From: a virus
IMG/VR virus record: IMGVR_UViG_3300031391_000022
Location: 1 to 20,468 of that record
Reading direction: 5' to 3' (one strand)
DNA length: 20,468 nucleotides
Position numbers and translations under genes: made by a program. The notes below the pieces were generated by a model that had not been told where the DNA came from, ran no database searches, and worked only from the letters and a program-made list of their open reading frames with translations. This document shows positions 2 to 20,096 of the stretch, in pieces; the first letter of the stretch is position 1, and every line of letters begins with the position of its first letter.

Positions 2-430
2 CGCGACGGCAAGATTACCGAGCGCGACGGCTACAAGGTCATACAGGACTGGATGATTGCCACTTACAAACGCCCGATATATTTGGCGTGGCTCAAATGG
101 TCAATCGACATGGGAATGGTTAAAATGAATCGCGGGCTTGGATCACCGTTGCCATTAGCAAAAATTGAAAAGTTTGCCGAGCATTCGTTTATCCCCCGCC
201 GCTGGCAGTGGGTTGACCCGCTCAAGGACATGAAGGCTATGGAGCTTGCGCGCAAAAACAATTGGACATCTGACAGCCAGATTGTGAGCGAGCAAGGCTC
301 CGACTTGACTGAACTTTACGATCAACAAGCAGAAGACGAAGAGTTGCGGATTCAAAAAGGCATCGAGAAACCGATTGACAAATCACTAACAAGTATCCAG
401 AAACTGGATACATCACCAGCAAGCCAATGA
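2..430 (+). CDS. Phage portal protein, C-terminal end (partial)
   Basis: The frame is open from the first bases of the window, so the gene begins upstream. It runs to a stop whose last bases form an ATGA overlap with the capsid gene. The visible 142 residues match the end of lambda gpB-type portals: a segment around PRRWQWVDPLKDMKAMELAR, then a 'TSDSQIVSEQGSDL' stretch, then an acidic, Gln-rich helical tail. Portal proteins form the twelve-part ring at one capsid vertex through which DNA enters and leaves. Its place directly before a protease-capsid gene is the standard order for siphovirus heads. The last codons also carry a TTGACA hexamer (375-380) and a 19-bp palindrome (393-411). Family assignment is from recalled motifs, not from a search. 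Confidence 0.8.
   Translation, partial: RDGKITERDGYKVIQDWMIATYKRPIYLAWLKWSIDMGMVKMNRGLGSPLPLAKIEKFAEHSFIPRRWQWVDPLKDMKAMELARKNNWTSDSQIVSEQGSDLTELYDQQAEDEELRIQKGIEKPIDKSLTSIQKLDTSPASQ
393..411 (+). promoter_or_regulatory. 19-bp palindrome, copy 1 (upstream of capsid gene)
   Basis: GTATCCAGAAACTGGATAC is a perfect 8-bp inverted repeat around a 3-base centre. It lies inside the end of the portal gene, 15 bases before the capsid ATG. TTGACA sits at 375-380, exactly 17 bases before CAGAAA within the motif, which is promoter-like -35/-10 geometry. It belongs to the dispersed GTATC-N9-GATAC family. Confidence 0.7.
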
Positions 431-2319
431 GTAAGATTAAACAAATCCCGCGTCACCTAAACCGCATCGCTCACGTCGAGCTGGAGCGCGGTTTAAACGT
501 GGATGCTCGCGAAGTCACGCTTTCGCTTTCGTCGGAAATGCCGATTCAAGACTTCCCTGGTGAGTTTACGATCCTCGACCACGGCACCGATGCCGTAATG
601 CTTGAGCGCCTAAACACCGCGGCACCATTGCTGTTTAATCACGACCGAAACATGCACCTCGGCAAAGTCACGAGGGCATATGTCGAAGATCGTAAACTTT
701 ACGTGATCGCTAGATTCGGCAACTCCGAACTAGCGCGCGAGAAATTTCAAGATGTGCAAGACGGCATACTCACGGAAGTGAGCGTGTCTGCAAAGATCCA
801 CGAAGTTAAGCTGGAAGAGTCCGGGTCGGACGGGGTTGACACCTACAGAGCTACCAAGTGGGAACCGCTAGAAGCATCGCTTGTCACTGTCTCTGCTGAC
901 ATTTCCGTCGGAGTCAACAGAACCGCAGCCAACCAACCCGACGACCAATACATCAAAATTTGTAATATTATGAGTGAACCAACCACACCCGCAACACCCG
1001 AGCCAATCGCTCGCGCCGAACCCACTGCAAAGCCAGTGATCGAATTCCGCACCGATCCTAAAGACATCGAGCGAAGCCAAAAAGCCGAGCGTGAGCGCGT
1101 CTCTGCAATCCACAGCCTAGCTAATCGCTATCAGGTTGAGGAAGCAGTCGTCCGCGACCACATCGACAACGACAAGCCACTGGAAGCATTCCAAGGCTAC
1201 GTGCTGACGAATCGCCACAACGCGAAACCAGTTAATACGAAAAACCGTGAGCTTGGTCTTTCCGAAAAAGAAAAGGAAAGCTTCTCGGTTGTCCGCGCAC
1301 TCTCGCAAACCGTCCGCGCAATGGACGGCCAGCACGGCGCATTTGACGGACTCGAAGCTGAGTGTTCGCGCGAAATGGAAAAGCTCATCGGCCGCGAAGC
1401 CAAAGGCTTTTTTCTTCCGACCGACATCAGCGAGCACCAGTCTGAAAAGGTCACACGCGAATTGAACCGCAACCTCTCCGCAGGTGTGGCAGCTAAGGGC
1501 GGATACACGATCGGCACGGACGTTCTTGGCGGCTCTCTTATCGAGTTGCTTCGCAATAAGTCGGTGCTGTCTGCTCTCGGTGTTCGCACCCTTAGCGGCT
1601 TGCGTGGTGACATCGCGATCCCAACCGTCGAAGGCGGCGCGACTGCTTATTGGCTGTCAGAAACTGGCGAAGTGACCGCTTCTGATCAAGCCTTTGGTCA
1701 GATCGGAATGACGCCAAAGCGCCTAGTTGGTGATACTGCATACAGCAAGCAATTGCTTACGCAGTCTAGTATCGGCGTTGAAGCGTTTGTGCGCGACGAC
1801 CTAATGACCGTGCTGGCTCTTGCAAAAGACTTAGCGGGCATTACAGGCAGCGGCGTAAGCGGGCAGCCTAGAGGCATCATGAACACGACCGGTATCGGCT
1901 CCGTAACGTTTGGCGCAACTGCCACACGTGCAAAGGCAATCGAATTCCAGACTGACGTTGCCACTGCAAACGCTTCACGCGGCTCCCTGAATTACCTGAC
2001 ATCGCCCGCAGTTGCAGGCGCATGGATGGGCATCGCAGAAGAGTCTGGCGCGGCACAATGGCTCTGGAAGGGCAACATCGACGAAGGCCAAGTAGTCGGT
2101 CGTCCTTGCCAATCCAGCAACCAGGTGCCTGACAACAAGGTGATCTACGGAAACTTTAATGATGCCATGTTTGCGGATTGGGATGGGATGGACGTAGTTG
2201 TCGATCCTTACAGCCTCAAAAAGACCGGGCAAATCGAAGTGACTATCCAGTTGCTTACCGACTTTGCAGTCCGCCACGCTGCATCGTTCTCCGTCTCATC
2301 TGACGCTGGCAATCAGTAA
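427..2319 (+). CDS. Fused HK97-type prohead protease and major capsid protein
   Basis: This 630-residue protein appears to join two functions. Residues 1 to about 165 resemble the HK97 (U35/S78) prohead protease: NHD with His72 as probable catalytic His, TEVSVSA with Ser119 or Ser121 as candidate nucleophile, and the WEPLEASLV segment near 146-153. A Pro/Glu-rich linker and a charged helical region (about 182-330), scaffold-like in character, come next. The C-terminal 300 residues look like an HK97-fold capsid protein, including GSGVSGQPRGIMN near 473 and an ending VTIQLLTDFAVRHAASF. The protease would trim the scaffold during head maturation. An in-frame ATG at 970 (Met182), preceded by an AT-rich run, could be an internal start giving capsid protein alone. 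The gene overlaps the portal gene by four bases. Confidence 0.88.
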   Translation: MSKIKQIPRHLNRIAHVELERGLNVDAREVTLSLSSEMPIQDFPGEFTILDHGTDAVMLERLNTAAPLLFNHDRNMHLGKVTRAYVEDRKLYVIARFGNSELAREKFQDVQDGILTEVSVSAKIHEVKLEESGSDGVDTYRATKWEPLEASLVTVSADISVGVNRTAANQPDDQYIKICNIMSEPTTPATPEPIARAEPTAKPVIEFRTDPKDIERSQKAERERVSAIHSLANRYQVEEAVVRDHIDNDKPLEAFQGYVLTNRHNAKPVNTKNRELGLSEKEKESFSVVRALSQTVRAMDGQHGAFDGLEAECSREMEKLIGREAKGFFLPTDISEHQSEKVTRELNRNLSAGVAAKGGYTIGTDVLGGSLIELLRNKSVLSALGVRTLSGLRGDIAIPTVEGGATAYWLSETGEVTASDQAFGQIGMTPKRLVGDTAYSKQLLTQSSIGVEAFVRDDLMTVLALAKDLAGITGSGVSGQPRGIMNTTGIGSVTFGATATRAKAIEFQTDVATANASRGSLNYLTSPAVAGAWMGIAEESGAAQWLWKGNIDEGQVVGRPCQSSNQVPDNKVIYGNFNDAMFADWDGMDVVVDPYSLKKTGQIEVTIQLLTDFAVRHAASFSVSSDAGNQ

Positions 2320-2339
2320 CCACTGACCGACCTCGCAGC

Positions 2340-2579
2340 ATGAAAATCATAATCACTCAGCCGACAGTTTGCGGCGGTAATCACGTCTCCATTGACGACG
2401 TTATCGATGCAACTGAATCAGACGCTCGTATGTTAATCCGTATCGGGAAAGCGGATACATACAGCGAGCCGCTGCCTACGCCGAGTGACAATGACGATCA
2501 GGGGCCTTTGATTCCATCCCGTATAGCAAAGGCCCCTCGCCGCAAAGTCAGCCGTTCAAAAACTTCAACCACAAAATAA
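2340..2579 (+). CDS. Small head-region protein, 79 aa
   Basis: The protein begins with a compact domain of the pattern 'xxP(T/x)xxGG...I(D)DVIDATESDARMLIRIGKAD', like short phage proteins often found beside capsid genes. It ends in a basic tail rich in Arg, Lys and Ser. No function is known to me. It follows the capsid gene by 20 bases and precedes another small head gene by nine. It has no Shine-Dalgarno site. The 52-residue protein at 5749-5907 shares the 'AxxLIxxGxA' ending of the compact domain. The coding region holds a 19-bp palindrome (2440-2458) and an 11-bp hairpin (2500-2537). Confidence 0.7.
   Translation: MKIIITQPTVCGGNHVSIDDVIDATESDARMLIRIGKADTYSEPLPTPSDNDDQGPLIPSRIAKAPRRKVSRSKTSTTK
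2440..2458 (+). promoter_or_regulatory. 19-bp palindrome, copy 2 (intragenic)
   Basis: GTATCGGGAAAGCGGATAC has both five-base arms exact with the nine-base spacing of the family. It is inside the 79-aa gene, about 130 bases before the next start. No TTGACA is seen at the usual distance. This is the weakest copy by context, but its arms match exactly. Confidence 0.5.
2500..2537 (+). repeat. Intragenic hairpin, 11-bp perfect stem
   Basis: AGGGGCCTTTG (2500-2510) pairs perfectly with CAAAGGCCCCT (2527-2537) across a 16-base loop. It has no T-run, so it is not a classical terminator. It lies in the coding region of the 79-aa gene and could slow or shape the transcript, or be chance. Confidence 0.5.
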
Positions 2580-2588
2580 TCTAAGACC

Positions 2589-2981
2589 ATGAGTATTCCT
2601 ACTAAAGTAACTTCGCTGACCAATGTGTCAGTCCTTCCAGCGTTTCTTCGCGTAGCCGCCGTAGATGGTGCCGCGATTGACCTGTTGCCATTTAATGGCA
2701 AAGTCGTAGTCGTCGTCAACAGCGGCAACATCACATCAGGCGCGACAAACTCAACGTTTCCGATTTCGCTGATGACCGGTGCTACCACTAGCATCGGCGA
2801 TGCATCGGCCGCTACGCTGGATACCACCATCACAGCAACCAACGTGGGCTCTTTGCAGACTGCCGAGGTTGACACGCGCAAAGCCGATCGTTATTTGTTC
2901 GCTCGCTGCACGATCACCGGTGGCTCAGATCCCGCGTTTCCGATCTCGATCAGCTTGATCGGATCACCGCAAACAGCATAA
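2589..2981 (+). CDS. Probable head decoration or small structural protein, 130 aa
   Basis: I do not recognise the family. The 130 residues are rich in Ser, Thr, Ala and beta-branched residues, with no membrane segment or cysteine-rich motif apart from one Cys near the end. The likely fold is all-beta, with a hydrophobic core 'GKVVVVVNSGN' around 37-47. It is the last gene before a strong terminator at 3020-3049, closing the capsid transcription unit. That position suits a decoration or stabilising protein, but this is inference from context only. There is no Shine-Dalgarno site before the ATG (leader TCTAAGACC). Confidence 0.72.
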   Translation: MSIPTKVTSLTNVSVLPAFLRVAAVDGAAIDLLPFNGKVVVVVNSGNITSGATNSTFPISLMTGATTSIGDASAATLDTTITATNVGSLQTAEVDTRKADRYLFARCTITGGSDPAFPISISLIGSPQTA

Positions 2982-3019
2982 TTTTCGTTAGGGGTAACGA
3001 GATCGTAAATACAGCGGAA

Positions 3020-3049
3020 GGAGCGTCTCGAAAGAGGCGCTCCTTTTTT
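3020..3049 (+). terminator. Rho-independent terminator after capsid genes
   Basis: GGAGCGTCTC, a GAAA tetraloop and GAGGCGCTCC (one G-T wobble) form a 10-bp stem followed by six T. It ends the head-gene transcript 39 bases after the 130-aa gene and just before the promoter-like element of the next gene. Confidence 0.9.
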
Positions 3050-3050
3050 A

Positions 3051-3120
3051 TGCACACACGCCTTGACAGACCTGCACACACACCGCAAGGTCGAGCTGTA
3101 GCAATTCCGCTGCACACACA
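3051..3120 (+). promoter_or_regulatory. Promoter-like element A (TGCACACA / TTGACA) of moron gene
   Basis: TGCACACA occurs at 3051, 3073 and 3111. TTGACA is at 3063-3068 followed by GACCTGCACACAC. No convincing TATAAT follows. The block from the first TGCACACA through GACCTGCACACAC is nearly identical to elements on the opposite strand at 18005-18035 and, less fully, 19711-19740. The TGCACACA copies could be activator or repressor sites around a -35 hexamer. Confidence 0.6.
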
Positions 3121-3128
3121 CAGACATT

Positions 3129-3575: not shown

Positions 3576-3584
3576 CTACCCCAC

Positions 3585-3610: not shown

Positions 3611-3629
3611 CGCGTCTTGCCATTTCAGC

Positions 3630-3648
3630 GTATCCAGTCCACAACTAC
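3630..3648 (+). promoter_or_regulatory. 19-bp palindrome, copy 3 (degenerate right arm)
   Basis: GTATCCAGTCCACAACTAC keeps the left arm, and its right arm ends in CTAC in place of GATAC. It closely matches copy 9 (GTATCCACAAATCAACTAC). It lies between the moron terminator and the ATG at 3653, four bases away, with TTGCCA at 3617-3622. This is where transcription of the connector genes would have to restart. Confidence 0.55.
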
Positions 3649-3652
3649 ACGC

Positions 3653-3988
3653 ATGAGCGATTTTGACGACTTCTTTTCCATCGCCGCACCCGAATTCTCG
3701 GCTGAGATGGACGATCCTATCAGCTTCGGCAGCGACACCGCAGCAAAGGTTGATTGCACGTTTGACGCGCTCGAAATGTCTACGGGGATCGAGCGATATG
3801 GCGATACCGAAAGCATCACGGCCCGCGCTGTCGTCGCGATGGCTTCCCTTAATACCGTGCCCAAGCAGAAGAGCCGCGTTTACCGCCACAAGACACAGAA
3901 GACCTACTACGTCGTCAGCGTGAGCACGGACGCGGGACACGTAGAGCTGTCGCTTACCGACGAGGGAGCGAAACGCGGTAATGGCTAA
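3653..3988 (+). CDS. Probable head-tail joining protein, 111 aa
   Basis: The size, position after the capsid module and overlap with a gp10-like gene fit a head-completion or head-tail joining protein (lambda gpFII-like role). The sequence has an acidic N-terminus (MSDFDDFF) and a beta-rich remainder ending 'TYYVVSVSTDAGHVELSLTDEG'. I chose the ATG at 3653, not the in-frame ATG at 3617, because 3617 lies just past the terminator and its extra 12 residues would cross the 19-bp palindrome. The stop overlaps the next gene by eight bases, so translation is probably coupled. Function is inferred from order. Confidence 0.65.
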   Translation: MSDFDDFFSIAAPEFSAEMDDPISFGSDTAAKVDCTFDALEMSTGIERYGDTESITARAVVAMASLNTVPKQKSRVYRHKTQKTYYVVSVSTDAGHVELSLTDEGAKRGNG

Positions 3989-4772: not shown

Positions 4773-4792
4773 AGTTCTTGACTTTCAATTCT

Positions 4793-4811
4793 GTATCCAT
4801 AAAACGGATAC
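4793..4811 (+). promoter_or_regulatory. 19-bp palindrome, copy 4
   Basis: GTATCCATAAAACGGATAC has exact arms and ends three bases before the ATG at 4815. TTGACT is at 4778-4783, 15 bases before the motif start. It is the exact reverse complement of copy 6 at 10570-10588, which also lies three bases before an ATGGCA start. Confidence 0.75.
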
Positions 4812-4814: not shown

Positions 4815-5321
4815 ATGGCAGCAACATCCGAGCAGCAACTTTACAATTTCGAGGGCAACATGGAGGCATCGTTTCGCGCATGGCTACAGGCTAAAGCGCT
4901 CGAAACGACTGTATCGGAAGCCACCGAAACCGCCGACGACAACCTGATCTACGCGCAGTTCCAAGTCGGCACTAGCACCGAGCACGTGGGCTACAAGGCC
5001 GACGGCACCACGCAGGAATACGATCAATACGCCTGCACCGTATCAATCGTCATACGCACACGCAGGCACTCAGAGGACGAGAGCTCAACCGCAAGCATCA
5101 ACACGCTGCATCAAGAGCGCGTCGGCTTAGTCCGCAAGTGGCTTTCAGTCTCGCAGGCGCGCGGCGGGGGTAACCTTGAAGGCTTTCTTACTCTCTACGA
5201 GTTGCAGTTCCTCGTCCCGCAGGCTGCCGAATACGACGTTGAAGCCCCCGACACGGACATCACGACGCTCAACTTTGCAGGTCAATTTTCAATCTTGCCA
5301 AATGCGTGGCCTGTATCATGA
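4815..5321 (+). CDS. Probable tail terminator-like protein, 168 aa
   Basis: The protein begins with a helix rich in Glu and Ala (ASFRAWLQAKALE) and continues as a mixed alpha/beta domain with 'YACTVSIVIRTRRH' and 'LYELQFLV' strands, which resembles the size and fold pattern of gpU-type tail terminators. These cap the tail tube and fix its length. It sits just before the probable tube protein. The stop codon lies inside 19-bp palindrome copy 5. The start is three bases after copy 4 and there is no Shine-Dalgarno site. The functional call is inference. Confidence 0.55.
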   Translation: MAATSEQQLYNFEGNMEASFRAWLQAKALETTVSEATETADDNLIYAQFQVGTSTEHVGYKADGTTQEYDQYACTVSIVIRTRRHSEDESSTASINTLHQERVGLVRKWLSVSQARGGGNLEGFLTLYELQFLVPQAAEYDVEAPDTDITTLNFAGQFSILPNAWPVS

Positions 5322-5331
5322 TTCTGGATAC
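5313..5331 (+). promoter_or_regulatory. 19-bp palindrome, copy 5
   Basis: GTATCATGATTCTGGATAC has both arms exact. It spans the stop of the preceding gene and lies 38 bases before the ATG at 5370. TTGCCA at 5295-5300 is 18 bases before the motif start, the same distance as TTGACA before copy 1. Confidence 0.65.
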
Positions 5332-5369: not shown

Positions 5370-5744
5370 ATGGCCATTCCATTCCCATCAGTCGCTAATC
5401 TGCCCCAAGGCTTTGAGAGCGTCACCATCGACAGCGTAGCCTACAAGGTTGACGCCGTGTCTCTCGCATCCGAAGAAACGCGAGTCATTGAGCGCACCGA
5501 CGAAAACGGTGACGCCTCTGATTTCATGCTTCGGGTCGCAGCCGGAAAGATCCAAGGATCTATAACGCTGCAACGTGCCTTGACTACTACCGCTTTTCCG
5601 CCCGCTGGTGAAAGCTTCACTTACGACTACGATCGCAGCGGCACTGCCTCTACGCTCGTTACAACTGGCGTTACCAATAACCGCGACAAGGACACGTTCG
5701 ACACTTTCGAGGTGCCCGTGCTCCTAAGCGAATACCAAGCATAA
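5370..5744 (+). CDS. Probable major tail tube protein, 124 aa
   Basis: This small beta-rich protein has 'VIERTDENGDASDFMLR' and 'GKIQGSITLQRA' segments, a pattern common in tube-forming tail proteins. Its position before a chaperone-like gene and the tape measure gene is where the tube gene is expected. At 124 residues it is short but within the known range. No other gene before the tape measure fits this role better. The ATG follows an A/C-rich leader (CACGTAATACC) without a Shine-Dalgarno site. Confidence is limited because no unmistakable motif is present. Confidence 0.55.
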   Translation: MAIPFPSVANLPQGFESVTIDSVAYKVDAVSLASEETRVIERTDENGDASDFMLRVAAGKIQGSITLQRALTTTAFPPAGESFTYDYDRSGTASTLVTTGVTNNRDKDTFDTFEVPVLLSEYQA

Positions 5745-5971: not shown

Positions 5972-6613
5972 ATGCCAACCATAAACCAACTCAGCGAGCA
6001 TTACACCGCAGAGCGCGAGCGCATCATTGAGGCTCGCCTCATGTCGTGGTCGTCTGTTTACGGCGTCTCGTCTGTATTGGGAATCTCGATACACCCGTTG
6101 ACGATGCTAGCTTGGGTTGACCTCAAGGTGAGCGGCAACGCGTTTGTCAACGCAACCGAGCCCAGCGATCCAGACGTGTTCGCTTATCTATGGCGAAACA
6201 GCACAGCATACGATTCCCGTAGGACGGTGAGCGCGTGGTGGGCTAAGCGCCGCGTCCGTAGGGCAATACGCCGTTCCGACCTCGTGGAAGTCCTGACAAC
6301 CGTATACGAGCACGTAGCTGAGGCATTCGACGAGTCACCGCAAACAGCAACCAAGGGTAGCGGCGTGCAGCGCAGTAACAAGATGCCTGCGATCGAGGGA
6401 TGCATTAGCGCGACTGACGAGCTGGCCAGCCGCTACGGTTGCACGCCAGACACGATTTGCAAATGGCCTATGAGTAAAATATTCCAGTGCCAGAAGGCAG
6501 CGCGAATTGCGACCGTGCCAGAGTATGACCCACTTGAGCCAGAATCGCTGCGAGAAATATCAAGCGCTATCCTTGAAAAACTTAATGAACCGCAAACAGA
6601 AGGAACAGACTAA
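5972..6613 (+). CDS. Tail assembly chaperone-like protein, 213 aa
   Basis: The gene lies between the probable tube gene and the tape measure gene, the fixed place of tail assembly chaperones. The N-terminal half has the pattern 'LGISIHPLTMLAWVDLKVSGNAF' followed by acidic residues and 'DVFAYLWRNS', which I associate with phage tail chaperone families. The middle is basic (WWAKRRVRRAIRR). I found no slippery heptamer or -1 extension, so it seems to be a single product rather than a gpG/gpGT pair. The stop overlaps the tape measure start (TAATG). Confidence 0.6.
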   Translation: MPTINQLSEHYTAERERIIEARLMSWSSVYGVSSVLGISIHPLTMLAWVDLKVSGNAFVNATEPSDPDVFAYLWRNSTAYDSRRTVSAWWAKRRVRRAIRRSDLVEVLTTVYEHVAEAFDESPQTATKGSGVQRSNKMPAIEGCISATDELASRYGCTPDTICKWPMSKIFQCQKAARIATVPEYDPLEPESLREISSAILEKLNEPQTEGTD

Positions 6614-10569: not shown

Positions 10570-10588
10570 GTATCCGTTTTATGGATAC
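10570..10588 (+). promoter_or_regulatory. 19-bp palindrome, copy 6
   Basis: GTATCCGTTTTATGGATAC has exact arms and is the exact reverse complement of copy 4. It ends three bases before the fibre ATG (10592). TTGACA is at 10555-10560, 15 bases before the motif start. It is well placed to start or control transcription of the fibre gene. Confidence 0.78.
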
Positions 10589-10591: not shown

Positions 10592-13288
10592 ATGGCAATC
10601 GACCTTTACATCAACACCGAAGCCCGCAGCCTCGAAACTGCAATCGTAACAGGCACCAAGCGGCCCACTGAGTCCGCCCGAATCCGCGAGTTCGTGCAGG
10701 GTGCCGATCAGGACTACATCTTGCACCTGATCAATGCCGACGGTAGCTACGACAGCCGCAGCGGTGACGAAGCCGTAGCAATGCGCGTAGGCGTGTCGGT
10801 GCGGGGCGGCACCGCCAAGACTGGCAAGTTCACCCTGACCGCTGGCGCAATCACATCAGAGGCTATCAGCTTCGGCGCATCGGCCTCTGCGCTTGAGGCG
10901 GCGCTAAACCGCATGAACTCCGGCGCAGGGCCATACAGTGACAAAGTGAAGGCGCAGAAACTCGGTGACGGCATGTGGCTCATTATCTTTGACACCGCTG
11001 GCGCTCAAGATGCGCTGGCCGCCGAAAGCCTCAACCTATTCCCTGAGTCTGGCGTCATCCCAAACCTCTACGTTACCGGCACGCCAACCATACGTTGCCA
11101 GCAGATAATCCGCGTAGCCCGGCAGCCCGCAATCTACAGCGAGACTTGGACAGCAGCGGGCACCACGTTTACGGGCACGCTAGACGCATCAACCGCCCGC
11201 GTGTCGCAACTGCTCAACGACGACTCAAGCGCGCAAGTCGTGTTCGAGGTCAAGGCCGACGACACCATCCTTTGCTCCGTCCCTTGCCGCATCCTGCCAG
11301 CCGTAGCCGACACTAGCGCATTCACCGGCGCAAGCCTTCCGACCCCTGTAACCGAGGCTTACGTGACCGCAGCCATTGCAGATGCGGCTCTTCCGGCTTC
11401 ATCGGTCTCGACGTTCGGAGGAACTCTCATCGATGACCCCGACGCAGCGACCGCAAGGGCGACGCTCGGAGTTGATGCGGCGGGAACCGACAACTCGACC
11501 GACGTAACTCTCGGAGGTGCGGGAACTTATATCTCGATCGCCGGACAGGTCATCACAGTCGACCCGATCACCGAGTCCGACATCAGCGATCTCGGAGCTT
11601 ACATCACCGGGATCACCGGGGAACCTCTCTCAGATCTCTCCGATGTCACGATCACCTCGATCGCATCCGGTGAGCTGCTCAAGTGGAACGGCTCCGCGTG
11701 GATCAATCAGACCTTGGCCGAAGCTGGGGTCGCGACAGCGGCTCAAGGCTCGCTCGCCGACTCCGCCGTACAATCAACAGACATCGACACATTGGCCGAG
11801 CTGAATGCGATCGTCGGAGACGCAACGCTCATCGACACCGGGGACTTTCGTCTCAGTGATGCTCGGACTCCCACGGCTCACACTCACACTGCAAGTGAAG
11901 TAACGGACTTCGACATTGAGGTTGCAAATAATTCTGCTGTTACAGCCAACACTGCAAAACTTACCGCTGACACAACTAACGTGACAGCCGCAGGTGCATT
12001 AATGGATTCTGAGGTGACTAACTTGGCCCAAGTCAAAGCTTTTGATACCACTGACTATGCAACAGCGGCTCAAGGCTCGCTCGCCGACTCTGCCGTTCAA
12101 TCAACAGACATCGACACCATTGCCGAGCTCAACGCCGTCGTCACCGATGCCACAATCCTCACCACCGCAACCGGCTACACCCAAGCCGCTGCGGATGCGG
12201 CAATCACCGCAAGCCTCACGCTGATCGGCAACACGATATTCGTCGCCAAGACTGGCACCGACACCCGCACCGGACTTGACGACCACGACATCCGCAAGCC
12301 GTTTCTAACGGTCAACGCAGCGCAGGCAGTGGCGGGCAGTGGCGACACGATTATGGTGTTTGCGGGCGACTACAGCGCAGAGACCGCGCTCGGTGGCGTG
12401 GATGGCGTTTATTATCAGGGGATGGACGGCGCAACGTTGCCAGCGTTTAACGTGACGACTGGGATTACTGTTTACGGCAGCGGATTGGCGCAGTCGCTCA
12501 CTTGCAATCATGCCAGCGCGATGATGAATTTTGCGCGGATGGATGCGGTTACTTTAATTTATTGCGATGGCGGCATGCAGACCGCAGGCAACGCTGGCAC
12601 TTTAATTTATTGCGATGGCGGCGTGCAGACCGCTGGCAACGCTGGCACTTATATTGCTTGCGAGGGCGGCGAGCAAACTGCTGGCAACGCTGGCACTTAT
12701 ATTATTTGCGATGGCGGCATGCAGACCGCAGGCAACGCTGGCACTTATATTTATTGCCTCACCGGCGGCGAGCAAACCGCAGGCAACGCTGGCACTTATA
12801 TTATTTGCGGGGGCGGCGTGCAGACCGCAGGCAACGCAGGCACTTATATTGGTTGCGCAGGCGGCGTGCAAACCGTCACTCACGCAAATTTAACCTCAAC
12901 AGACCGCCCCGTAAGATTGTTAGGATCAGGCAGCCTCACCATCACAGGACGCATTGAATCAACAGAATCTGGCGGCGTAGTCGTTGATATTGCTAATAGC
13001 TGGAGCGGTTCGCTCAAGCTTGTTGACTGCAACCTGACCGCAACTACAGTAGCAACCAACGAGGCAACCAAGGGCATCAATTACGGAACTAGCGTGACGG
13101 GCGATGTGCAGCTAAAGAACTGCACACTTATCACAGCACAGAATGGTAACGGAACCGCCCGCGCAATTGCATCCCCAAGTGCACAGACAATATATCTACA
13201 GACACCATGCGCATCCACACATGATGCGGAGTCGACCATAACACCGACAGGTGCCGATCTATTTATTAATCCCAACTTCACCGCGTAA
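10592..13288 (+). CDS. Tail fibre with beta-helix and cysteine-bearing 16-residue repeats, 898 aa
   Basis: Probable receptor-binding fibre. Residues 1 to about 245 form the likely tail-attachment part. Residues 250-530 are fibre-like, with the common phage segment 'FRLSDARTPTAHTH' and a duplicated 'TAAQGSLADSAVQSTDID' unit. A beta-helix-type opening follows near 546-595 (IFVAKTGTD..., then a GSGDTIMVFAGDYSAE segment), as in pectate-lyase-like folds. Residues 654-766 are seven 16-residue repeats (one has 17) with pattern T-x-I-x-C-x-G-G-x-Q-T-A-G-N-A-G. These resemble AIDA-type autotransporter passenger repeats and put one Cys in each of seven units. I chose the ATG at 10592, three bases after palindrome copy 6; an in-frame ATG at 10562 would cross that motif. 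Confidence 0.85.
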   Translation: MAIDLYINTEARSLETAIVTGTKRPTESARIREFVQGADQDYILHLINADGSYDSRSGDEAVAMRVGVSVRGGTAKTGKFTLTAGAITSEAISFGASASALEAALNRMNSGAGPYSDKVKAQKLGDGMWLIIFDTAGAQDALAAESLNLFPESGVIPNLYVTGTPTIRCQQIIRVARQPAIYSETWTAAGTTFTGTLDASTARVSQLLNDDSSAQVVFEVKADDTILCSVPCRILPAVADTSAFTGASLPTPVTEAYVTAAIADAALPASSVSTFGGTLIDDPDAATARATLGVDAAGTDNSTDVTLGGAGTYISIAGQVITVDPITESDISDLGAYITGITGEPLSDLSDVTITSIASGELLKWNGSAWINQTLAEAGVATAAQGSLADSAVQSTDIDTLAELNAIVGDATLIDTGDFRLSDARTPTAHTHTASEVTDFDIEVANNSAVTANTAKLTADTTNVTAAGALMDSEVTNLAQVKAFDTTDYATAAQGSLADSAVQSTDIDTIAELNAVVTDATILTTATGYTQAAADAAITASLTLIGNTIFVAKTGTDTRTGLDDHDIRKPFLTVNAAQAVAGSGDTIMVFAGDYSAETALGGVDGVYYQGMDGATLPAFNVTTGITVYGSGLAQSLTCNHASAMMNFARMDAVTLIYCDGGMQTAGNAGTLIYCDGGVQTAGNAGTYIACEGGEQTAGNAGTYIICDGGMQTAGNAGTYIYCLTGGEQTAGNAGTYIICGGGVQTAGNAGTYIGCAGGVQTVTHANLTSTDRPVRLLGSGSLTITGRIESTESGGVVVDIANSWSGSLKLVDCNLTATTVATNEATKGINYGTSVTGDVQLKNCTLITAQNGNGTARAIASPSAQTIYLQTPCASTHDAESTITPTGADLFINPNFTA
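11735..12141 (+). repeat. Duplicated segment within the fibre gene (two units)
   Basis: Bases 11735-11814 and 12062-12141 are related; the first 50 or so differ at only a few positions, and similarity then fades. Both encode TAAQGSLADSAVQSTDID followed by T-(L/I)-AELNA. The units are 327 bases apart. This is a typical fibre shaft duplication. Confidence 0.8.
12551..12889 (+). repeat. Tandem 48-bp repeat array, seven units
   Basis: Units of 48 bases follow head to tail in the fibre frame; the fifth has one extra codon (51 bases). Units 1 to 6 are close copies and unit 7 diverges after GGVQT. Because 48 is divisible by three, several other frames stay open through the array and give spurious ORFs. 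This is a protein-coding repeat and not a CRISPR array. Confidence 0.92.
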
Positions 13289-13437: not shown

Positions 13438-13466
13438 CCGACCGCCGCGAATCACTTTGACAAAAC

Positions 13467-13491: not shown

Positions 13492-13791
13492 ATGAGCCAA
13501 CTTCCCGCACTCACTGCCAACGGCAGCACCACACCAATCGCCGCAAACGGCGCTTACACACTCTCCGCAGCTGGCACGTTCGACAGCGCGACCGTAATCA
13601 TGCAAGCGTCATGGGACGGCGGCACCACATACCACGACTTGACTGACTCCAACGGCACGGCGTTTGCAGCTACGGCCAACAAAGCCGAAAACATCGATGT
13701 GGCAAAGTGCCTATTTCGCGCAACCATGACCGACGCAGGCGCATCTTCCAGCGTGATCGTTTCAATCGTAACCTTCCGCGATCTCCGCTAA
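13492..13791 (+). CDS. Small virion-type protein, 99 aa
   Basis: All-beta small protein with a pattern often seen in virion surface or tail-associated proteins: 'SLxx...IAANGAYTLSAAGTFDSATVIMQASWDGGTTYHDL', then a hydrophobic C-terminal strand (SSVIVSIVTF). Its ATG lies six bases after 19-bp palindrome copy 7, and its stop overlaps the next ATG (TAATG). Function is unknown. Confidence 0.65.
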   Translation: MSQLPALTANGSTTPIAANGAYTLSAAGTFDSATVIMQASWDGGTTYHDLTDSNGTAFAATANKAENIDVAKCLFRATMTDAGASSSVIVSIVTFRDLR

Positions 13792-15400: not shown

Positions 15401-15401
15401 C

Positions 15402-15686
15402 ATGCCAAACCAATCTGACACGACCCAAATCCCGAACAAATACGCGAGCTTACTGCTAGTCGGATCGCTACTATTTTTGGGAATGGTCTCAATCTACGCA
15501 GGCAACGAAGCCCACGACCTCAAAAAAGCCGTGCAGGCGAGCAGCATGGCAGACGGGCGACAAGACGCGATGATTGACGCGATCCTGCAAACGCAAGCGG
15601 ACGGCAAAAAGGCCACCGAAAAACTGACTGATGCCGTGATCGAGCTGACCATTGAAATCGCCAAGATACCAATCCCAACGCCATGA
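15402..15686 (+). CDS. Small membrane protein with helical tail (holin or i-spanin-like), 94 aa
   Basis: One transmembrane segment is clear at about residues 14-34 (YASLLLVGSLLFLGMVSIYAG). A charged, Ala/Lys-rich helix (40-85) that could form a coiled coil follows. This architecture fits an inner-membrane spanin or a holin-associated protein. The gene sits directly before a lipoprotein gene and overlaps it by four bases (ATGA), the order expected for an i-spanin/o-spanin pair. AGGA lies eight bases upstream as a weak ribosome site. I use the ATG at 15402; the in-frame ATG at 15357 would overlap the preceding gene widely. Confidence 0.6.
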   Translation: MPNQSDTTQIPNKYASLLLVGSLLFLGMVSIYAGNEAHDLKKAVQASSMADGRQDAMIDAILQTQADGKKATEKLTDAVIELTIEIAKIPIPTP

Positions 15687-16336
15687 CACTCCGAAACATC
15701 ACAACCCTTTTTACTGTATCCATAATCCTGATACTGGGCGCAGGGTGTTCGAGTGTCGGACTCCAGAGCAAACGCATTTTCCAGGACACCGTGGCCGCGC
15801 CCGTGGTCAAGGAGGTTACCGAGGACATCCGCCAAGCAGCAGACTACCTCTCAAAGTCCGTAGAAGAGCCTACCGAGGCAAAGGGCGTAGCGATAGACCT
15901 CTCGCAGCGTGTCGGCCCGCCTGAGCGTCCTATCAACGCAGCAAACGACGTTTCCGCCGCACTGACTAAAGGTAACCAAGCGCACGAGGATGATCTAGCT
16001 GACTTGATGACATGGCTCGACAAGCGCGAAGGCACCGCACTGGAAGGCACTGGACTGTCGCTATGGGGCGCAGGCGGCTTTGTCGTCGTGCTACTGATCG
16101 TCGTCGCGTGCGTGCTAGTCCCCGCGCTAATCCCGCTCGTCATACAGCTCGTGCAGACCATAGCAGGGACCTCGCGCGCAGTGCTACGGCAGACCGGTGC
16201 GGCGATGGTATCGGCGATCAGCGAATGGGAGGTCGAGAACCCGACCGAAGCCAAAGAGCTCAAGGCGCTCCTGTCGCGCAAAATGGATACCAAGAGCAAG
16301 ACGATCGTCAAGAAACTCAAAGCTGGCCAGCTCTAG
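15683..16336 (+). CDS. Lipoprotein with central membrane segment (spanin-like), 217 aa
   Basis: The N-terminus is a lipoprotein signal: charged MTLRN, a hydrophobic core and the lipobox LGAGC with Cys22. The mature part has a soluble region (about 30-120) and a long hydrophobic segment near 126-158 (FVVVLLIVVACVLVPALIPL), then a basic helical tail. A lipid-anchored N-terminus plus a later membrane segment recalls unimolecular spanins, although here some 60 residues follow the membrane segment. It is the last rightward gene before the convergent terminator. Alternatively it is an o-spanin partner of the preceding gene. A double-membraned host is implied. The region coding the signal peptide contains 19-bp palindrome copy 8. 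Confidence 0.6.
   Translation: MTLRNITTLFTVSIILILGAGCSSVGLQSKRIFQDTVAAPVVKEVTEDIRQAADYLSKSVEEPTEAKGVAIDLSQRVGPPERPINAANDVSAALTKGNQAHEDDLADLMTWLDKREGTALEGTGLSLWGAGGFVVVLLIVVACVLVPALIPLVIQLVQTIAGTSRAVLRQTGAAMVSAISEWEVENPTEAKELKALLSRKMDTKSKTIVKKLKAGQL
15716..15734 (+). promoter_or_regulatory. 19-bp palindrome, copy 8 (inside lipoprotein gene)
   Basis: GTATCCATAATCCTGATAC has exact arms and starts 33 bases into the spanin-like gene, within the signal-peptide codons. Codon choice alone could produce part of it, but the full 19-base match argues for selection. No TTGACA is seen at the usual distance. Confidence 0.55.
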
Positions 16337-16440: not shown

Positions 16441-16465
16441 CCGTCTCTGCGGTTGCCGCTGTGAC

Positions 16466-16952: not shown

Positions 16953-17554
16953 AGTGATTCGAGAATCTCCTTACGGTTAGTGATTGCGTGCGACATTGCG
17001 GCTTTCCACCCTGCGCGGAAGTGCTCACTCAAATGGGGAAACGAATACGCGCCCCCTTTTGAGTGAGCCATCCACGCCACATCGATCGCGCACGGCGCAA
17101 CGTATGCGCGGATGCGGCAGTGCTCGGGGAAATGCTCCTGCGCCCATGCGGTGCGCACGTCAACGGCGTAGTGGCGACGGGCGGTTTGAATGCCGAAGGG
17201 TGCGTTAAATCCGCCAACCCATTGACTGCGTGAATCCACCATGTAATATTGCCCTTCTGACTCGGGGATGTCTTTGCCAAGTCCCACATACGCCATCCAC
17301 GGCTCCAGCTCGGGGCAGCCGTCTGGCGCGCGGCACGGGTCAAGCTCGGTCACGGCGTAGCAGTGCCGAAAGCTACCGCCTGCCTGGTAAGGATAGTGAT
17401 TATTCCTCGTGTAGATCGCGCTAAGTGTGCGGATTTCGTAATCTCCGTGAGTCTTACTGTCGCGAAATGCCAGCTTTTCGCCAGCTTCCGCAAGCCTCAG
17501 TGCTGCCACTATGTTAGCGACTAGCGCGTATGTTTTGATTGTTTCGTTTTTCAT
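16949..17554 (-). CDS. Leftward protein of unknown family, 201 aa
   Basis: Starts MKNETIKTYALVANIVAALRL at 17554, eight bases beyond 19-bp palindrome copy 9. It has a mixed alpha/beta composition with many Tyr, Trp and His, and six Cys-containing short motifs, for example 'FRHCYAVTELDPCRAPDGCPELEPW'. The last 25 residues (FRAGWKAAMSHAITNRKEIL) resemble a short helix seen at the ends of several phage early proteins. The in-frame extension to 17779 is rejected because it overlaps two other leftward frames. It overlaps the next gene by four bases. Confidence 0.65.
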   Translation of the reverse strand: MKNETIKTYALVANIVAALRLAEAGEKLAFRDSKTHGDYEIRTLSAIYTRNNHYPYQAGGSFRHCYAVTELDPCRAPDGCPELEPWMAYVGLGKDIPESEGQYYMVDSRSQWVGGFNAPFGIQTARRHYAVDVRTAWAQEHFPEHCRIRAYVAPCAIDVAWMAHSKGGAYSFPHLSEHFRAGWKAAMSHAITNRKEILESL

Positions 17555-17562
17555 AGTCGTGT

Positions 17563-17581
17563 GTAGTTGATTTGTGGATAC
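17563..17581 (-). promoter_or_regulatory. 19-bp palindrome, copy 9 (leftward)
   Basis: Read leftward it is GTATCCACAAATCAACTAC, eight bases before the ATG at 17554. Its degenerate right arm (CTAC) matches copy 3, which lies four bases before a rightward start, so the two form a sub-class. No TTGACA is visible before it. Confidence 0.6.
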
Positions 17582-17583
17582 GC

Positions 17584-17685
17584 TCACAGGCCCGCCCGCC
17601 ACGACATGACCACGACGTAGAGCGCAGCGGCAGACGGGGCGAGCAGGCACGCACAGAGCGCGTAGAGTGCGAGTGTGTAGATCAC
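17584..17685 (-). CDS. Small hydrophobic protein with GTG start, 33 aa
   Basis: The GTG start overlaps the stop of the preceding gene as GTGA, the same coupling seen elsewhere in the block as ATGA. The 33 residues are hydrophobic through most of their length (IYTLALYALCACLLAPSAAALYVVV), so it is probably a single-span membrane peptide. Too short for family recognition. Confidence 0.5.
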   Translation of the reverse strand: MIYTLALYALCACLLAPSAAALYVVVMSWRAGL

Positions 17686-17939
17686 GCGTGCGCCGCTCTC
17701 CTCGCGCGTGCTGTGCGGTTGTTGATGCTTTGCGGATGGATGCCGAGGTCGGCAGCGACGGCAGACGGACGCTCGCCATTGCCGACGCGGATCATTGCGG
17801 CGTCAACCGTGCTGGATGCGGAGCGGTGGCGGCCGCTATCTGTAACGTCGCCAGTGCGCATTAGAAGCTCCATCTTGAGCTTGAGGCTGTGGGCGTAATC
17901 CATGCAGTGGGATTCGCGGGAGTGATTCATGTGTAGCAT
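17682..17939 (-). CDS. Small helix-turn-helix protein, 85 aa
   Basis: Residues about 44-80 carry a helix-turn-helix pattern: VDAAMIRVGNGERPSAVAADL, turn GI, then HPQSINNRTARARR. This resembles homeodomain-like or transposase-type DNA-binding helices, which suggests a regulator of nearby promoters. It is preceded by promoter-like element B (18005-18035). I use the ATG at 17939; the frame stays open to 18026 but the extra residues translate the promoter element. The leader ends CCCACTACGAAA with no Shine-Dalgarno site. It could be the factor that binds one of the dispersed motifs, but this is speculation. Confidence 0.6.
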   Translation of the reverse strand: MLHMNHSRESHCMDYAHSLKLKMELLMRTGDVTDSGRHRSASSTVDAAMIRVGNGERPSAVAADLGIHPQSINNRTARARRAAHA

Positions 17940-18004
17940 TTTCGTAGTGGGTTCGGTGTGTGTGTGCGTCAGCTGAGTGCGTCCGCTGGTGTGACCCTGC
18001 GGGG

Positions 18005-18035
18005 TGTGTGCAGGTCTGTCAAGCAATTGTGTGCA
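18005..18035 (-). promoter_or_regulatory. Promoter-like element B (leftward)
   Basis: Read leftward: TGCACACA (18035-18028), then TTGACA (18022-18017), then GACC and a second TGCACACA (18012-18005). The segment CTTGACAGACCTGCACACAC is identical to element A. It lies about 65 bases before the ATG of the helix-turn-helix gene. Confidence 0.65.
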
Positions 18036-18049
18036 AGTTTCGTATTTAT

Positions 18050-18346
18050 TTACTGATAGCTAATATCCAATCCCAACGCCTGCGCGACTACGTGCTCAGC
18101 CACCGCACCCTTAGAGTGCTCCCATCCCCGCAGCATGTAGACGACATCGACGCAGAGCAACTGCGCGATCGACAGCCGCATATACTGCGCGTGAGCGACA
18201 GCAGTATCGCCGTCGTAGTTGACCGCAGGGTCGATGACCGCGTAGCCTAGCAGCCGCCACTCGTAAGCAGCAGAGGCGAACGCGGGGCGATTGTGGAGCG
18301 GGATACCGGTGATGGGGCCGCTGATGTAGATGATGCGTGTTTTCAT
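18050..18346 (-). CDS. DUF4406-like protein, 98 aa
   Basis: The sequence has the DUF4406 pattern: IYISGPITG near the start, PAFASAAYEWRLLGYAVIDPA, then YMRLSIAQLLCVDVVYMLRGW with the closing SKGAVAEHVVAQALGL. This family is related to the nucleoside 2-deoxyribosyltransferase fold (Rossmann-like), and members are frequent in phage early regions. No experimentally fixed phage role is known to me. The start at 18346 follows an ACACACCAGCACT leader. It lies 29 bases after the AT-rich membrane gene pair. Confidence 0.85.
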   Translation of the reverse strand: MKTRIIYISGPITGIPLHNRPAFASAAYEWRLLGYAVIDPAVNYDGDTAVAHAQYMRLSIAQLLCVDVVYMLRGWEHSKGAVAEHVVAQALGLDISYQ

Positions 18347-18375
18347 AGTGCTGGTGTGTTCGCGGAATATGCGCA

Positions 18376-18600
18376 TTACTTCTTATGGTCGTGATGTTTT
18401 AAACGACATAGAGAATCCTCCGAAGAGGGAATTGAATTACGTAGCTTGGACTTTTTCCCTGGGCTTTGTTGTCTTTGTTTTTGGAGCACTATGGAAGATA
18501 CTGACGCTATATGACTTACTACCATCATAAGCAATCCATACCCCATTAACAACCAAGGGACTAACCAGTCGAGCGACTCAATAAATTTCGCTAGGCTCAT
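18376..18600 (-). CDS. Small membrane protein, 74 aa (AT-rich cassette)
   Basis: Hydrophobic through about residues 11-40 (LDWLVPWLLMGYGLLMMVVSHIASV), so one or two membrane spans, then a basic soluble tail with Lys, Ser and His. Its ATG is adjacent to the stop of the preceding gene (TAAATG), so the two form a pair. Codon use is more AT-rich than other leftward genes. A membrane-located exclusion or lysis role is possible but not shown. Confidence 0.62.
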   Translation of the reverse strand: MSLAKFIESLDWLVPWLLMGYGLLMMVVSHIASVSSIVLQKQRQQSPGKKSKLRNSIPSSEDSLCRLKHHDHKK

Positions 18601-18951
18601 TTAAGAGTCCTCTCTACGGTTCTCAGAATGAAAATCTTCAGCTCTAACCCAAACCTCGGATTTATACTTAAAGAATCTGCCCCCGAAGGAGTTGTCGTAG
18701 ATTTTGATCCGCCCGTCATTTGCCGATCTGCCGAAATCACCCCAGCCGAATTCGTAATTGCGCTTAAATTTGCCCTTGATGTCGATGTGAAAACGGTAGC
18801 GATGTGGCTCCTGTCTGAGTCTAAGCAAAAAATAAAGAGCATAAAGACAGAGAGCAATCTGTCCGTAAATATAGACCTCAGAGAGATGGAGCTTGCCATC
18901 TCCATGGAGAAAAAAACTACCAAAAAATACTATAAAGATTAATCTTTTCAT
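18601..18951 (-). CDS. Membrane protein with soluble C-terminal domain, 116 aa (AT-rich cassette)
   Basis: The N-terminus (MKRLIFIVFFGSFFL) is a signal or first membrane segment, and a second hydrophobic segment lies near residues 27-45 (YIYGQIALCLYALYFLL). The remaining 70 residues are soluble, aromatic and basic (RYRFHIDIKGKFKRNYEFG...). An AAGG-type ribosome site sits before the ATG (AAGGAAAAGGTAACATT). A rightward frame at 18628-18942 overlaps most of it, but lacks a ribosome site and is judged a shadow. With the next gene it forms a compact membrane-protein pair. Confidence 0.65.
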   Translation of the reverse strand: MKRLIFIVFFGSFFLHGDGKLHLSEVYIYGQIALCLYALYFLLRLRQEPHRYRFHIDIKGKFKRNYEFGWGDFGRSANDGRIKIYDNSFGGRFFKYKSEVWVRAEDFHSENRREDS

Positions 18952-19025
18952 AATGTTACCTTTTCCTTGTTATCGTTGCGTTAAAAATCCTAGAACCAGT
19001 CAGGCTGAGAGGCTGCGTTCGTGCC

Positions 19026-19298
19026 TCACTTGCTCTCACCTTCCTTGTTCTGACAATTAAACCTACGGGCTTTCCCTTTGTGCGAAGCGAGCAAACCATC
19101 TTGTCCGCATCGTATTTGGCCTAGTGCGTTACCAATGGCCATTTCAGCGTCTTCCACGGTAAACAAGATTTGCCCATCCAGTAGCCAGCCGCAGACATAT
19201 TCCGCTATCTCAAATTGAGAGAATCGCGGTTGATTTCGGCGAGGATCAGAACCAATCGGTTGTATTAATTCCTTTCGTTCATTATTCACTACAGTCAT
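19026..19298 (-). CDS. Leftward protein of unknown family, 90 aa
   Basis: Has the best ribosome site of the window (GGAGGTG, six bases before ATG). Residues 20-65 form a mixed helical domain (FSQFEIAEYVCGWLLDGQIL, FTVEDAEMAIGNALGQI), followed by a basic polar tail. I cannot name a family. It follows the 56-aa gene by 18 bases, so they are likely one transcript. Confidence 0.65.
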   Translation of the reverse strand: MTVVNNERKELIQPIGSDPRRNQPRFSQFEIAEYVCGWLLDGQILFTVEDAEMAIGNALGQIRCGQDGLLASHKGKARRFNCQNKEGESK

Positions 19299-19316
19299 TA
19301 TACACCTCCACGTTCG

Positions 19317-19487
19317 CTACCCTTTGAAGTTGACCCGAGCCTTCGGCATAAGCCGTCCTTCCCTCTGCGCCTCCATGCGCTCGCTGTCGCGGTCAGGCTC
19401 GCGCTCGATGAACGCGGGGCGACCGTATGGGCTGAGGCGGGCGCAGTGTGTGGGCTGCTCGGTGGGGGGTGGCTGTTTGTCGGTCAT
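19317..19487 (-). CDS. Small polar protein, 56 aa
   Basis: Begins MTDKQPPPTEQPTHCARLSP at 19487 after a CACACACATACGAACT leader; the frame is open upstream to an ATG at 19553, which would add 22 residues. The protein is charged and proline-rich with no membrane segment. It may be an intrinsically disordered small early protein. It lies downstream of promoter-like element C and just before the 90-aa gene. Confidence 0.5.
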   Translation of the reverse strand: MTDKQPPPTEQPTHCARLSPYGRPAFIEREPDRDSERMEAQREGRLMPKARVNFKG

Positions 19488-19766
19488 AGTTCGTATGTGT
19501 GTGAAATTGTCCACCAGCCGCGCTCCCCCGCACTTCCTCGCGGTGTACTGCATATGGGATTAACAGACCCTTCGGGGGGCTACTGGTGGGAGCATTGACA
19601 GACTGCGCAGATCGCGCGGAGGGAAATAAAAACCTCGCCTGTAAATGCCCGTAAAATGGTGGTAAAGAACGGTGCCGTCTTTCCGGCTGCCATGCCCCCA
19701 ACATGCGCCGACCTGCACAGGTGTCAAGCGTTTGTGTGCATATTTCTCAAATAAATATTCGCACCC
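19488..19766 (-). other. Intergenic stretch of 279 bases
   Basis: No convincing gene is present. It holds promoter-like element C (19711-19740) and a rightward TTGACA at 19595-19600 without a clear -10 or partner repeat. Longer frames here (leftward from 19704) look like shadows of the neighbouring gene. Confidence 0.5.
19711..19740 (-). promoter_or_regulatory. Promoter-like element C (leftward)
   Basis: Read leftward: TGCACACA (19740-19733), AACGC, TTGACA (19727-19722), then CCTGTGCAGG. ACCTGCACAGGT at 19711-19722 is a palindrome overlapping the TTGACA. The order TGCACACA then TTGACA matches elements A and B; the part after TTGACA is diverged. It would drive the 56-aa and 90-aa genes. Confidence 0.55.
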
Positions 19767-20009
19767 CTACTCAGCCGTAATTCCCCGCATCCGCAGAATC
19801 GCCGCCATTGCGCCCGCCCGCTGCGACGCCTTCCGCGCCTCGCTCTTCCGCGCGGCCTTGACCTCGCTCGCCCGCTGCGCCTGGTAGGCTACGAGTTCAT
19901 GGTCGATGTAGCCATCAATGACGGGCGGCAGCCCACGGTCGGCTCGCTGTTGCTTGCGCTCGGCGGCCTTCGTCGCCTTTTCCCAGTCAGTCATTCGCGG
20001 TCGTCCCAT
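19767..20009 (-). CDS. Small basic helical protein, 80 aa
   Basis: Starts MGRPRMTDWEKATKAAERKQ at 20009; a TTG-initiated extension to 20069 would place the start eight bases from palindrome copy 10 but is less likely. The protein is strongly helical and basic-acidic (Ala, Lys, Arg, Glu), with a short central segment (LPPVIDGYIDHELVAYQAQ). It could bind nucleic acid, but no motif proves it. It is the first leftward gene of the block. Confidence 0.55.
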   Translation of the reverse strand: MGRPRMTDWEKATKAAERKQQRADRGLPPVIDGYIDHELVAYQAQRASEVKAARKSEARKASQRAGAMAAILRMRGITAE

Positions 20010-20077
20010 GACGGCACTTTCTAGCGTGGTATGCGGCGCGTCAAGCCATTGTAATAAGAAATATGGCAATAGGGCTT

Positions 20078-20096
20078 GTATTTAGATTCTGAATAC
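20078..20096 (-). promoter_or_regulatory. 19-bp palindrome, copy 10 (leftward)
   Basis: Read leftward it is GTATTCAGAATCTAAATAC, a relaxed family member: left arm GTATT, right arm AATAC as in copy 7. TTTGCA lies 17 bases before the motif start. It is 68 bases before the ATG at 20009 and eight before the alternative TTG at 20069. Confidence 0.55.

What the first reader, a model, noticed from the sequence alone, without database searches (positions are those of the whole stretch)
393..20096. Ten dispersed 19-bp imperfect palindromes (GTATC-N9-GATAC) near start codons in both arms
Copies at 393, 2440, 3630, 4793, 5313, 10570, 13467, 15716 and, leftward, 17563-17581 and 20078-20096. All are exactly 19 bases. 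Six (393, 2440, 4793, 5313, 10570, 15716) have both five-base arms exact; by chance a 10-base gapped pattern is expected about 0.02 times in a window this size. Six lie 3-15 bases before a probable start. This recalls the dispersed repressor 'stoperators' of mycobacteriophage L5 or a phage-specific promoter set. I do not know this sequence as a described motif.
Basis: partly seen in the sequence, partly recalled or inferred. Interest (0 to 1): 0.8.

Follow-up and report, generated by a model that had tools for sequence, protein, structure and literature searches.

The report
Shared DNA switch sites in Verrucomicrobiota-type phages
An uncultured phage carries at least a dozen copies of a 19-base mirror-image DNA sequence, most of them placed on promoters directly in front of genes; relatives keep them, and a satellite-like island and the chromosomes of the probable host group contain the same spaced sequence, which suggests that a host DNA-binding protein controls the phage genes there.

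Summary
GTATC-N9-GATAC occurs six times exactly in 20.5 kb against 0.02 expected and is the most enriched dyad in the window; two further one-mismatch copies were missed (6074, 9143).

The window belongs to a phage clade without detectable HTH_3 repressor or integrase, probably infecting Verrucomicrobiota/Opitutae. Between relatives the arms change 0.5% against 6.5% in flanks. In three sub-clades (tail-tube identity down to 59%) the same gene starts carry a TTGAC-like box, the palindrome and ATG. Box-to-ATG distance is 36.4 ± 1.0, whereas box-to-palindrome distance varies from 5 to 13. This fits a -35 box of a nearly leaderless promoter with an operator lying over the -10/+1 region. Early genes have an asymmetric variant.

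The same dyad, at that spacing, is enriched in chromosomes of several genomes of the Opitutae MAG's class, mostly inside genes, and occurs five times in an integrated satellite-like island. It is absent from more distant phages.

Best reading: operators for a dimeric DNA-binding protein, probably host-encoded, that blocks phage promoters. The protein is unidentified. No described motif was found in four literature searches.

The parts
393..411 (+). Palindrome GTATCCAGAAACTGGATAC, 15 nt before the ATG (427) of the protease-capsid gene
   Evidence: unchanged in L009, L010 and the sister contig G002
375..379 (+). TTGAC box, 13 nt before the palindrome at 393
2440..2458 (+). Palindrome GTATCGGGAAAGCGGATAC inside ORF 2340-2579
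   Evidence: invariant in L009 while the flanks differ at 38 of 154 positions
3617..3621 (+). TTGCC box (-35-like)
   Evidence: conserved with nearly the same geometry in L353 (TTGCC) and L354 (TTGAT)
3630..3648 (+). Asymmetric copy GTATCCAGTCCACAACTAC, 4 nt before ATG 3653
4778..4782 (+). TTGAC box (-35-like)
   Evidence: kept in L009, L012, L353 and L354 although neighbouring bases differ
4793..4811 (+). Palindrome GTATCCATAAAACGGATAC, 3 nt before ATG 4815
5295..5299 (+). TTGCC box, 13 nt before the palindrome
   Evidence: same distance in sub-clade 2a (L353:9954)
5313..5331 (+). Palindrome GTATCATGATTCTGGATAC, 38 nt before ATG 5370 (tail-tube-like gene)
6074..6092 (+).
   Evidence: arms unchanged in G001 and L018
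9143..9161 (+).
   Evidence: present in L006 and L018
10555..10559 (+). TTGAC box (-35-like)
   Evidence: conserved in three sub-clades
10570..10588 (+). Palindrome GTATCCGTTTTATGGATAC, 3 nt before ATG 10592; reverse complement of the 4793 site
13457..13461 (+). TTGAC box; TTGACA-17-TAATAC promoter whose -10 coincides with the 3' arm of the palindrome
   Evidence: -10 window TAATAC at 17 nt in the window and L230; box at the same distance in L353 and L354
13467..13485 (+). One-mismatch copy GTATCTATAATCCTAATAC, 6 nt before ATG 13492
15716..15734 (+). Palindrome GTATCCATAATCCTGATAC, 33 nt into the lipoprotein-like ORF 15683-16336
   Evidence: unchanged in G001
17563..17581 (-). Asymmetric copy GTATCCACAAATCAACTAC, 8 nt before the ATG of a leftward gene; identical core upstream of an early gene at G002:14319
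20078..20096 (-). Copy GTATTCAGAATCTAAATAC upstream of leftward genes
   Evidence: GTATTCAGATTGTGAATAC in G001/G002

Best explanation
The copies are operators: 19-bp binding sites for a dimeric DNA-binding protein, most likely encoded by the host (Verrucomicrobiota, Opitutae-like). On the phage they lie over the -10/+1 region of sigma70-type, nearly leaderless promoters whose -35 box (TTGAC/TTGCC) sits 35-39 nt before the start codon. A bound dimer would block RNA polymerase at late genes (symmetric, presumably strong sites) and, through weaker asymmetric sites, at early genes. Intragenic copies would act as roadblocks. Shown: motif, placement, conservation, promoter geometry, the same spacing-specific dyad in chromosomes and in an integrated island. 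Inferred: that a protein binds, that it represses, that it is host-encoded, and that the host is Opitutae-like.
For: Six exact copies against 0.022 expected. Arm substitutions 1/210 against 185/2858 in flanks, Fisher P 3e-5; a few of those comparisons are between paralogous sites. Same gene starts marked in three sub-clades with 30-63% protein identity between clades 1 and 2a, 59% in the tail-tube protein for 2b. Box-to-ATG 36.4 +/- 1.0 against box-to-palindrome sd 2.2 (range 5-13): the box behaves as a -35 element and the palindrome does not sit at a fixed place in the promoter, as expected for an occluding protein. Palindrome read in either orientation at equivalent positions (4793 against 10570), which favours DNA over RNA. 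GTATCC-N7-GGATAC: 16 of 17 dyads over 21 spacings in G078, also enriched in G008, G094, G042, G131, not in 15 genomes of other groups. Five exact sites in 6.7 kb of an integrated island in G042.
Against: No binding protein has been identified. In chromosomes the sites lie mostly inside genes, with no preference for gene starts, so a repressor role there is doubtful. Several -10 hexamers are poor, and a generic sigma70 scan finds no excess of promoters. Early-gene sites lack the TTGAC box. An activator cannot be excluded. A virus cannot be linked to its host by contig binning and protein similarity alone.
Confidence: 0.5

Rival explanations
1. Sites of a phage-encoded regulator (late activator or repressor) of a family that HTH_3 does not detect; the chromosomal and island copies reflect convergence or past elements.
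For: Sites are far denser on the phage and placed at gene starts; many phage proteins remain unassigned; the P2 Ogr/P4 Delta precedent of helper and satellite sharing late-promoter dyads (own knowledge).
Against: The box-to-palindrome distance varies from 5 to 13 nt, which is unusual for an activator. Chromosomal enrichment with the same 19-bp spacing in several genomes is left unexplained. The visible HTH protein is not conserved outside the clade.
Confidence: 0.25
2. A chromosome-wide architectural, segregation or self-marking motif of the host (comparable to matS, SlmA or Noc sites) that the phage and the island carry for the same purpose, with the promoter overlap incidental.
For: Chromosomal copies lie mostly inside genes, spread over whole chromosomes; AT-rich centres of the G078 sites although the surrounding genes look GC-rich; island copies are not all at gene starts.
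Against: On the phages the sites track the same promoters across three sub-clades at 2-7 nt from ATG, which architecture alone does not predict.
Confidence: 0.13
3. RNA hairpin acting on translation next to the start codon.
For: Several copies can form a 6-8 bp stem directly before ATG (sequences).
Against: Conserved C-A mismatches at the 13492 site in three sub-clades and the asymmetric ACTAC copies break the stem; the loop can be reversed (4793 against 10570); copies occur inside genes in chromosomes.
Confidence: 0.06
4. LexA (SOS) boxes of the host.
For: Phages often borrow LexA control (own knowledge).
Against: Motif-rich G078 and G051 have no LexA match, and no good match to the motif was found directly upstream of the lexA genes examined.
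Confidence: 0.02

Closest known systems
Mycobacteriophage L5 stoperators (Gp71 repressor)
   Same: Many near-identical short sites dispersed over both arms, in intergenic and intragenic places, at gene starts
   Different: L5 sites are 13-bp and asymmetric and are bound by a phage repressor (own knowledge); these are 19-bp palindromes, no HTH_3 repressor was detected, and the dyad also occurs in chromosomes
phiC31-type conserved inverted repeats (CIR)
   Same: Dispersed palindromic operators overlapping phage promoters
   Different: CIRs are early-region sites of a phage-encoded repressor (own knowledge); here late genes are marked and the binder may be a host protein
P2 Ogr / P4 Delta late-promoter dyads
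   Same: Dyad shared by a phage and a satellite-like island at late genes
   Different: Ogr sites lie near -55 as activator sites (own knowledge); here the dyad covers -10/+1
SlmA, Noc and matS chromosomal palindromes
   Same: Palindromes spread over a chromosome, mostly inside genes
   Different: Different sequence and length; no such protein is known for this motif; phage copies sit on promoters

Membership tests
L5-type stoperator system | many dispersed near-identical sites | tested here: met
L5-type stoperator system | asymmetric core with orientation bias | tested here: not met
   sites are palindromic; 4793 and 10570 are reverse complements; only the early variant is directional
L5-type stoperator system | phage-encoded repressor in a temperate phage | tested here: not met
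   no HTH_3 and no tyrosine integrase in the window, G001 and G002; other repressor families not excluded
phiC31 CIR operators | palindromes overlapping the -10 of sigma70-type promoters | tested here: inconclusive
   box-to-ATG geometry fits and TAATAC -10 at gene 13492; other -10 elements are weak
phage single-subunit RNA polymerase promoters | fixed non-palindromic promoter plus an RNA polymerase gene | tested here: not met
   palindromic, at varying distance from the box; no RNA polymerase among the families found, but no dedicated search was made
LexA box | site directly upstream of lexA and presence tied to LexA | tested here: not met
P2 Ogr/P4 Delta sites | dyad near -55 and a zinc-finger activator | tested here: not met
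   the dyad lies within about 2-7 nt of ATG at most gene starts; the Ogr protein was not searched for
chromosome-organising palindromes (matS/SlmA/Noc type) | chromosome-wide distribution with ori/ter bias and a cognate protein | tested here: inconclusive
   spread over G131 with no obvious empty region; ori/ter only roughly placed from GC skew; protein unknown

The most novel reading that the evidence does not exclude
Part of the Verrucomicrobiota has an undescribed, chromosome-wide DNA-binding protein (19-bp site GTATCC-N7-GGATAC, mostly inside genes) that phages and an integrated satellite-like island have adopted as their common transcription switch, placing its site over leaderless promoters.
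Probability: 0.25. Interest if true: 0.78.

Novelty: new variant of a known kind. Interest (0 to 1): 0.58.

Why it matters
Regulation of phages of uncultured Verrucomicrobiota is essentially undescribed in the papers searched here. A defined 19-bp site gives a direct handle for fishing out the protein. If it is a host protein, the case would link chromosome-wide binding with control of phages and of an integrated island by one factor. The tight 36-nt box-to-ATG distance also predicts leaderless transcription in these phages, which can be tested on metatranscriptomes.

Tried and rejected
LexA as the binder. The small HTH protein 17682-17939 as a conserved binder. Distant phages found through the capsid protein (35-44% identity): no motif and no strong substitute dyad in those examined. 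The dyad of L367 (ATATC-N13-GATAT) is a coding tandem repeat. L024 and L019, hit by the pattern scan, look like chance single matches. A co-regulated gene class at chromosomal sites was not found. Between G042 and G060 (92-94% identity) conservation was too high to test selection on chromosomal sites. A generic promoter scan did not help. The tool's reversed-pattern control for chromosomes was judged unsuitable, because CCTA/TAGG-type words are rare in bacteria (own knowledge), so other spacings of the same arms were used as control. Literature searches for the motif, for Verrucomicrobia LexA motifs and for Verrucomicrobia phage promoters gave nothing that describes it in the titles and abstracts returned; no paper was read in full.
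Full report
OBSERVATION. The ten coordinates are correct and six copies are exact in both arms. Among all 5-bp dyads with spacers of 0-21, GTATC-N9-GATAC is the most enriched in the window: 6 observed, 0.022 expected, P 1.4e-13. Two more one-mismatch copies exist (6074, 9143). Copies with two mismatches are not significant alone (17 matches against 5.45 expected), but 3630 and 17563 belong to an asymmetric variant GTATCCA-N7-ACTAC. It has two entries in the window and five in the sister contig G002, one site being shared between them, and none in 100 simulations of G002. Four of these lie shortly before a start codon of an early or leftward gene (G002 11622, 14319, 15477; window 17563), and 3630 precedes gene 3653.

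WHAT THE WINDOW IS. It is a viral record of 20,468 bases with a portal end, a fused protease-capsid protein and a tape-measure-like protein (the last name is by position and size). Sister contigs G001 (28.9 kb) and G002 (27.0 kb) are 99.4% identical over 20 kb and between them span about 36 kb. They encode a gpA-type terminase large subunit, a Sak-type annealing protein, a weak NinB match, a DNA methylase with an SNF2-type helicase, and HNH endonucleases. No HTH_3 or tyrosine-integrase match was found, so nothing points to lysogeny, although other repressor families are not excluded. The best cellular match of the capsid protein is an Opitutae MAG (42%), the second a Verrucomicrobiota MAG. The same MAG (G008) contains a 15-kb contig of a related phage carrying the motif. 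The host assignment rests on this and is inferred.

CONSERVATION. Against relatives that have diverged nearby, the arms changed at 1 of 210 positions, the TTGAC/TTGCC boxes at 0 of 70 and the flanks at 185 of 2858 (Fisher P 3e-5 for arms and 0.02 for boxes). A few of these comparisons are between paralogous sites, related pairs are not independent, and the box of site 5313 was placed one base off in that script, so the P values are indicative. The intragenic copy at 2440 is invariant in L009, where 38 of 154 flanking positions differ.

PROMOTER GEOMETRY. A second sub-clade (L230/L353 and others, found with the DNA pattern) and a third (L354/L355) share tail and connector genes at 30-63% protein identity (59% for the tail-tube protein of the third). 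The same gene starts carry the same element: the pre-portal gene and the genes at 3653, 4815, 10592 and 13492 in all three sub-clades, and the gene at 5370 in two. Over 16 such promoters the box-to-ATG distance is 36.4 +/- 1.0 nt, whereas box-to-palindrome distance has sd 2.2 (range 5-13) and palindrome-to-ATG sd 1.5. The sites at 393 and 5313, which lie farther from their starts, were left out of this figure. The box was chosen by eye among TTGAC, TTGCC, TTGAT, TTGCA and TTTAC, which favours a tight result. TTGAC/TTGCC at 34-39 nt before an ATG occurs at 3% of window ATGs. The box therefore behaves as a -35 element of a promoter starting at or very near the ATG. The palindrome covers the -10/+1 region but slides relative to the box. 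At gene 13492 the -10 (TAATAC, 17-bp spacer) coincides with the palindrome's 3' arm in the window and in L230; the L354 sequence shows the same arrangement by eye. Other -10 hexamers are weaker, and a generic sigma70 scan shows no excess. A sliding position argues for an occluding repressor rather than an activator or a core promoter element. This is inference.

DNA OR RNA. The 4793 and 10570 sites are reverse complements of each other in equivalent positions. Conserved C-A mismatches at 13492 and the ACTAC copies break an RNA stem. DNA binding is favoured.

BEYOND THE PHAGE. GTATCC-N7-GGATAC occurs 7 times in G008, 16 in G078, 13 in G094, 6 in G042, 5 in G131 and 4 in G051, and not at all in 123 of 141 genomes of the class. 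Two of the G008 copies are on the phage contig C54 and two of the G042 copies are in the island described below. Spacing is the proper control: in G078 16 of 17 dyads over spacers 0-20 have N7; G131 uses N6 and N7. Fifteen genomes of other groups show no such preference. With 5-bp arms G131 shows 18 each at N8 and N9 against 3 in total at N7, N10, N11 and N12 among the places listed (counted by eye). Of 56 places tested by script, 50 lie inside an ORF; the set includes nine phage contigs, in most of which the site falls in an ORF that begins at the upstream TTG, so the figure describes chromosomes only approximately. The TTGMC-linked arrangement in the class is confined essentially to the phage contig G008:C54. 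An integrated element in G042 (integrase-like protein, HTH_17 protein, CHC2/Toprim primase; the TerS-like assignment is by weak similarity to a phage protein) holds five exact sites in 6.7 kb, all at N9, 0.023 expected. Phages with 35-44% capsid identity and the tail-tube relatives L356-L370 lack the exact motif.

BEST EXPLANATION. Operators for a dimeric DNA-binding protein, probably encoded by an Opitutae-like host, overlapping leaderless phage promoters and blocking them. The symmetric late sites may be strong and the asymmetric early ones weak, which could order expression in time (speculation). What the protein does on the chromosome, where the sites are mostly intragenic, is open. LexA is not supported as the binder.

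LIMITS. The binder is unknown and nothing has been tested at the bench. Relatives come from few metagenomes. Only openly licensed papers were searched.

Noticed in passing
window 3063 (+), 18022 (-), 19727 (-); L031 12049 (+), 12571 (+), 10644 (-), 9059 (-); G002 21878 (+): A second promoter-operator family: TTGAC followed by GACCTGCACA or its reverse complement (for example TTGACACCTGTGCAGGTCGGCGCATGTTGGGGGCATGG). In four copies the TTGAC lies 34-35 nt before an ATG, again leaderless-like.
   Followed up: partly
L300:12877-19545 (G042:C98:172877-179545): Satellite-like integrated island (integrase-like protein, HTH_17 protein, primase, possible TerS) with five exact GTATC-N9-GATAC sites.
   Followed up: partly
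genome G065 (class of the Opitutae MAG): A related 18-bp family GTATCGGAACCGGGATAC in several slightly different copies.
   Followed up: no
window 11732-12872 and L015 5737-7252: Long internal repeats: 48-nt units in the large tail-region ORF, and a paralogous family of repeat-rich small proteins in the sister contig.
   Followed up: no
L031 6602-8976 (-): Adjacent N6/N4 DNA methylase and SNF2-type helicase genes in the leftward arm of the sister contig; no ORF of that length is in the matching part of the window.
   Followed up: no
L328:226, 796, 2927: Another viral contig (35 kb) with GTATCCAAAAACTGGATAC-type sites, two of them right after T-rich stretches; possibly an unrelated phage using the same site.
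   Followed up: no
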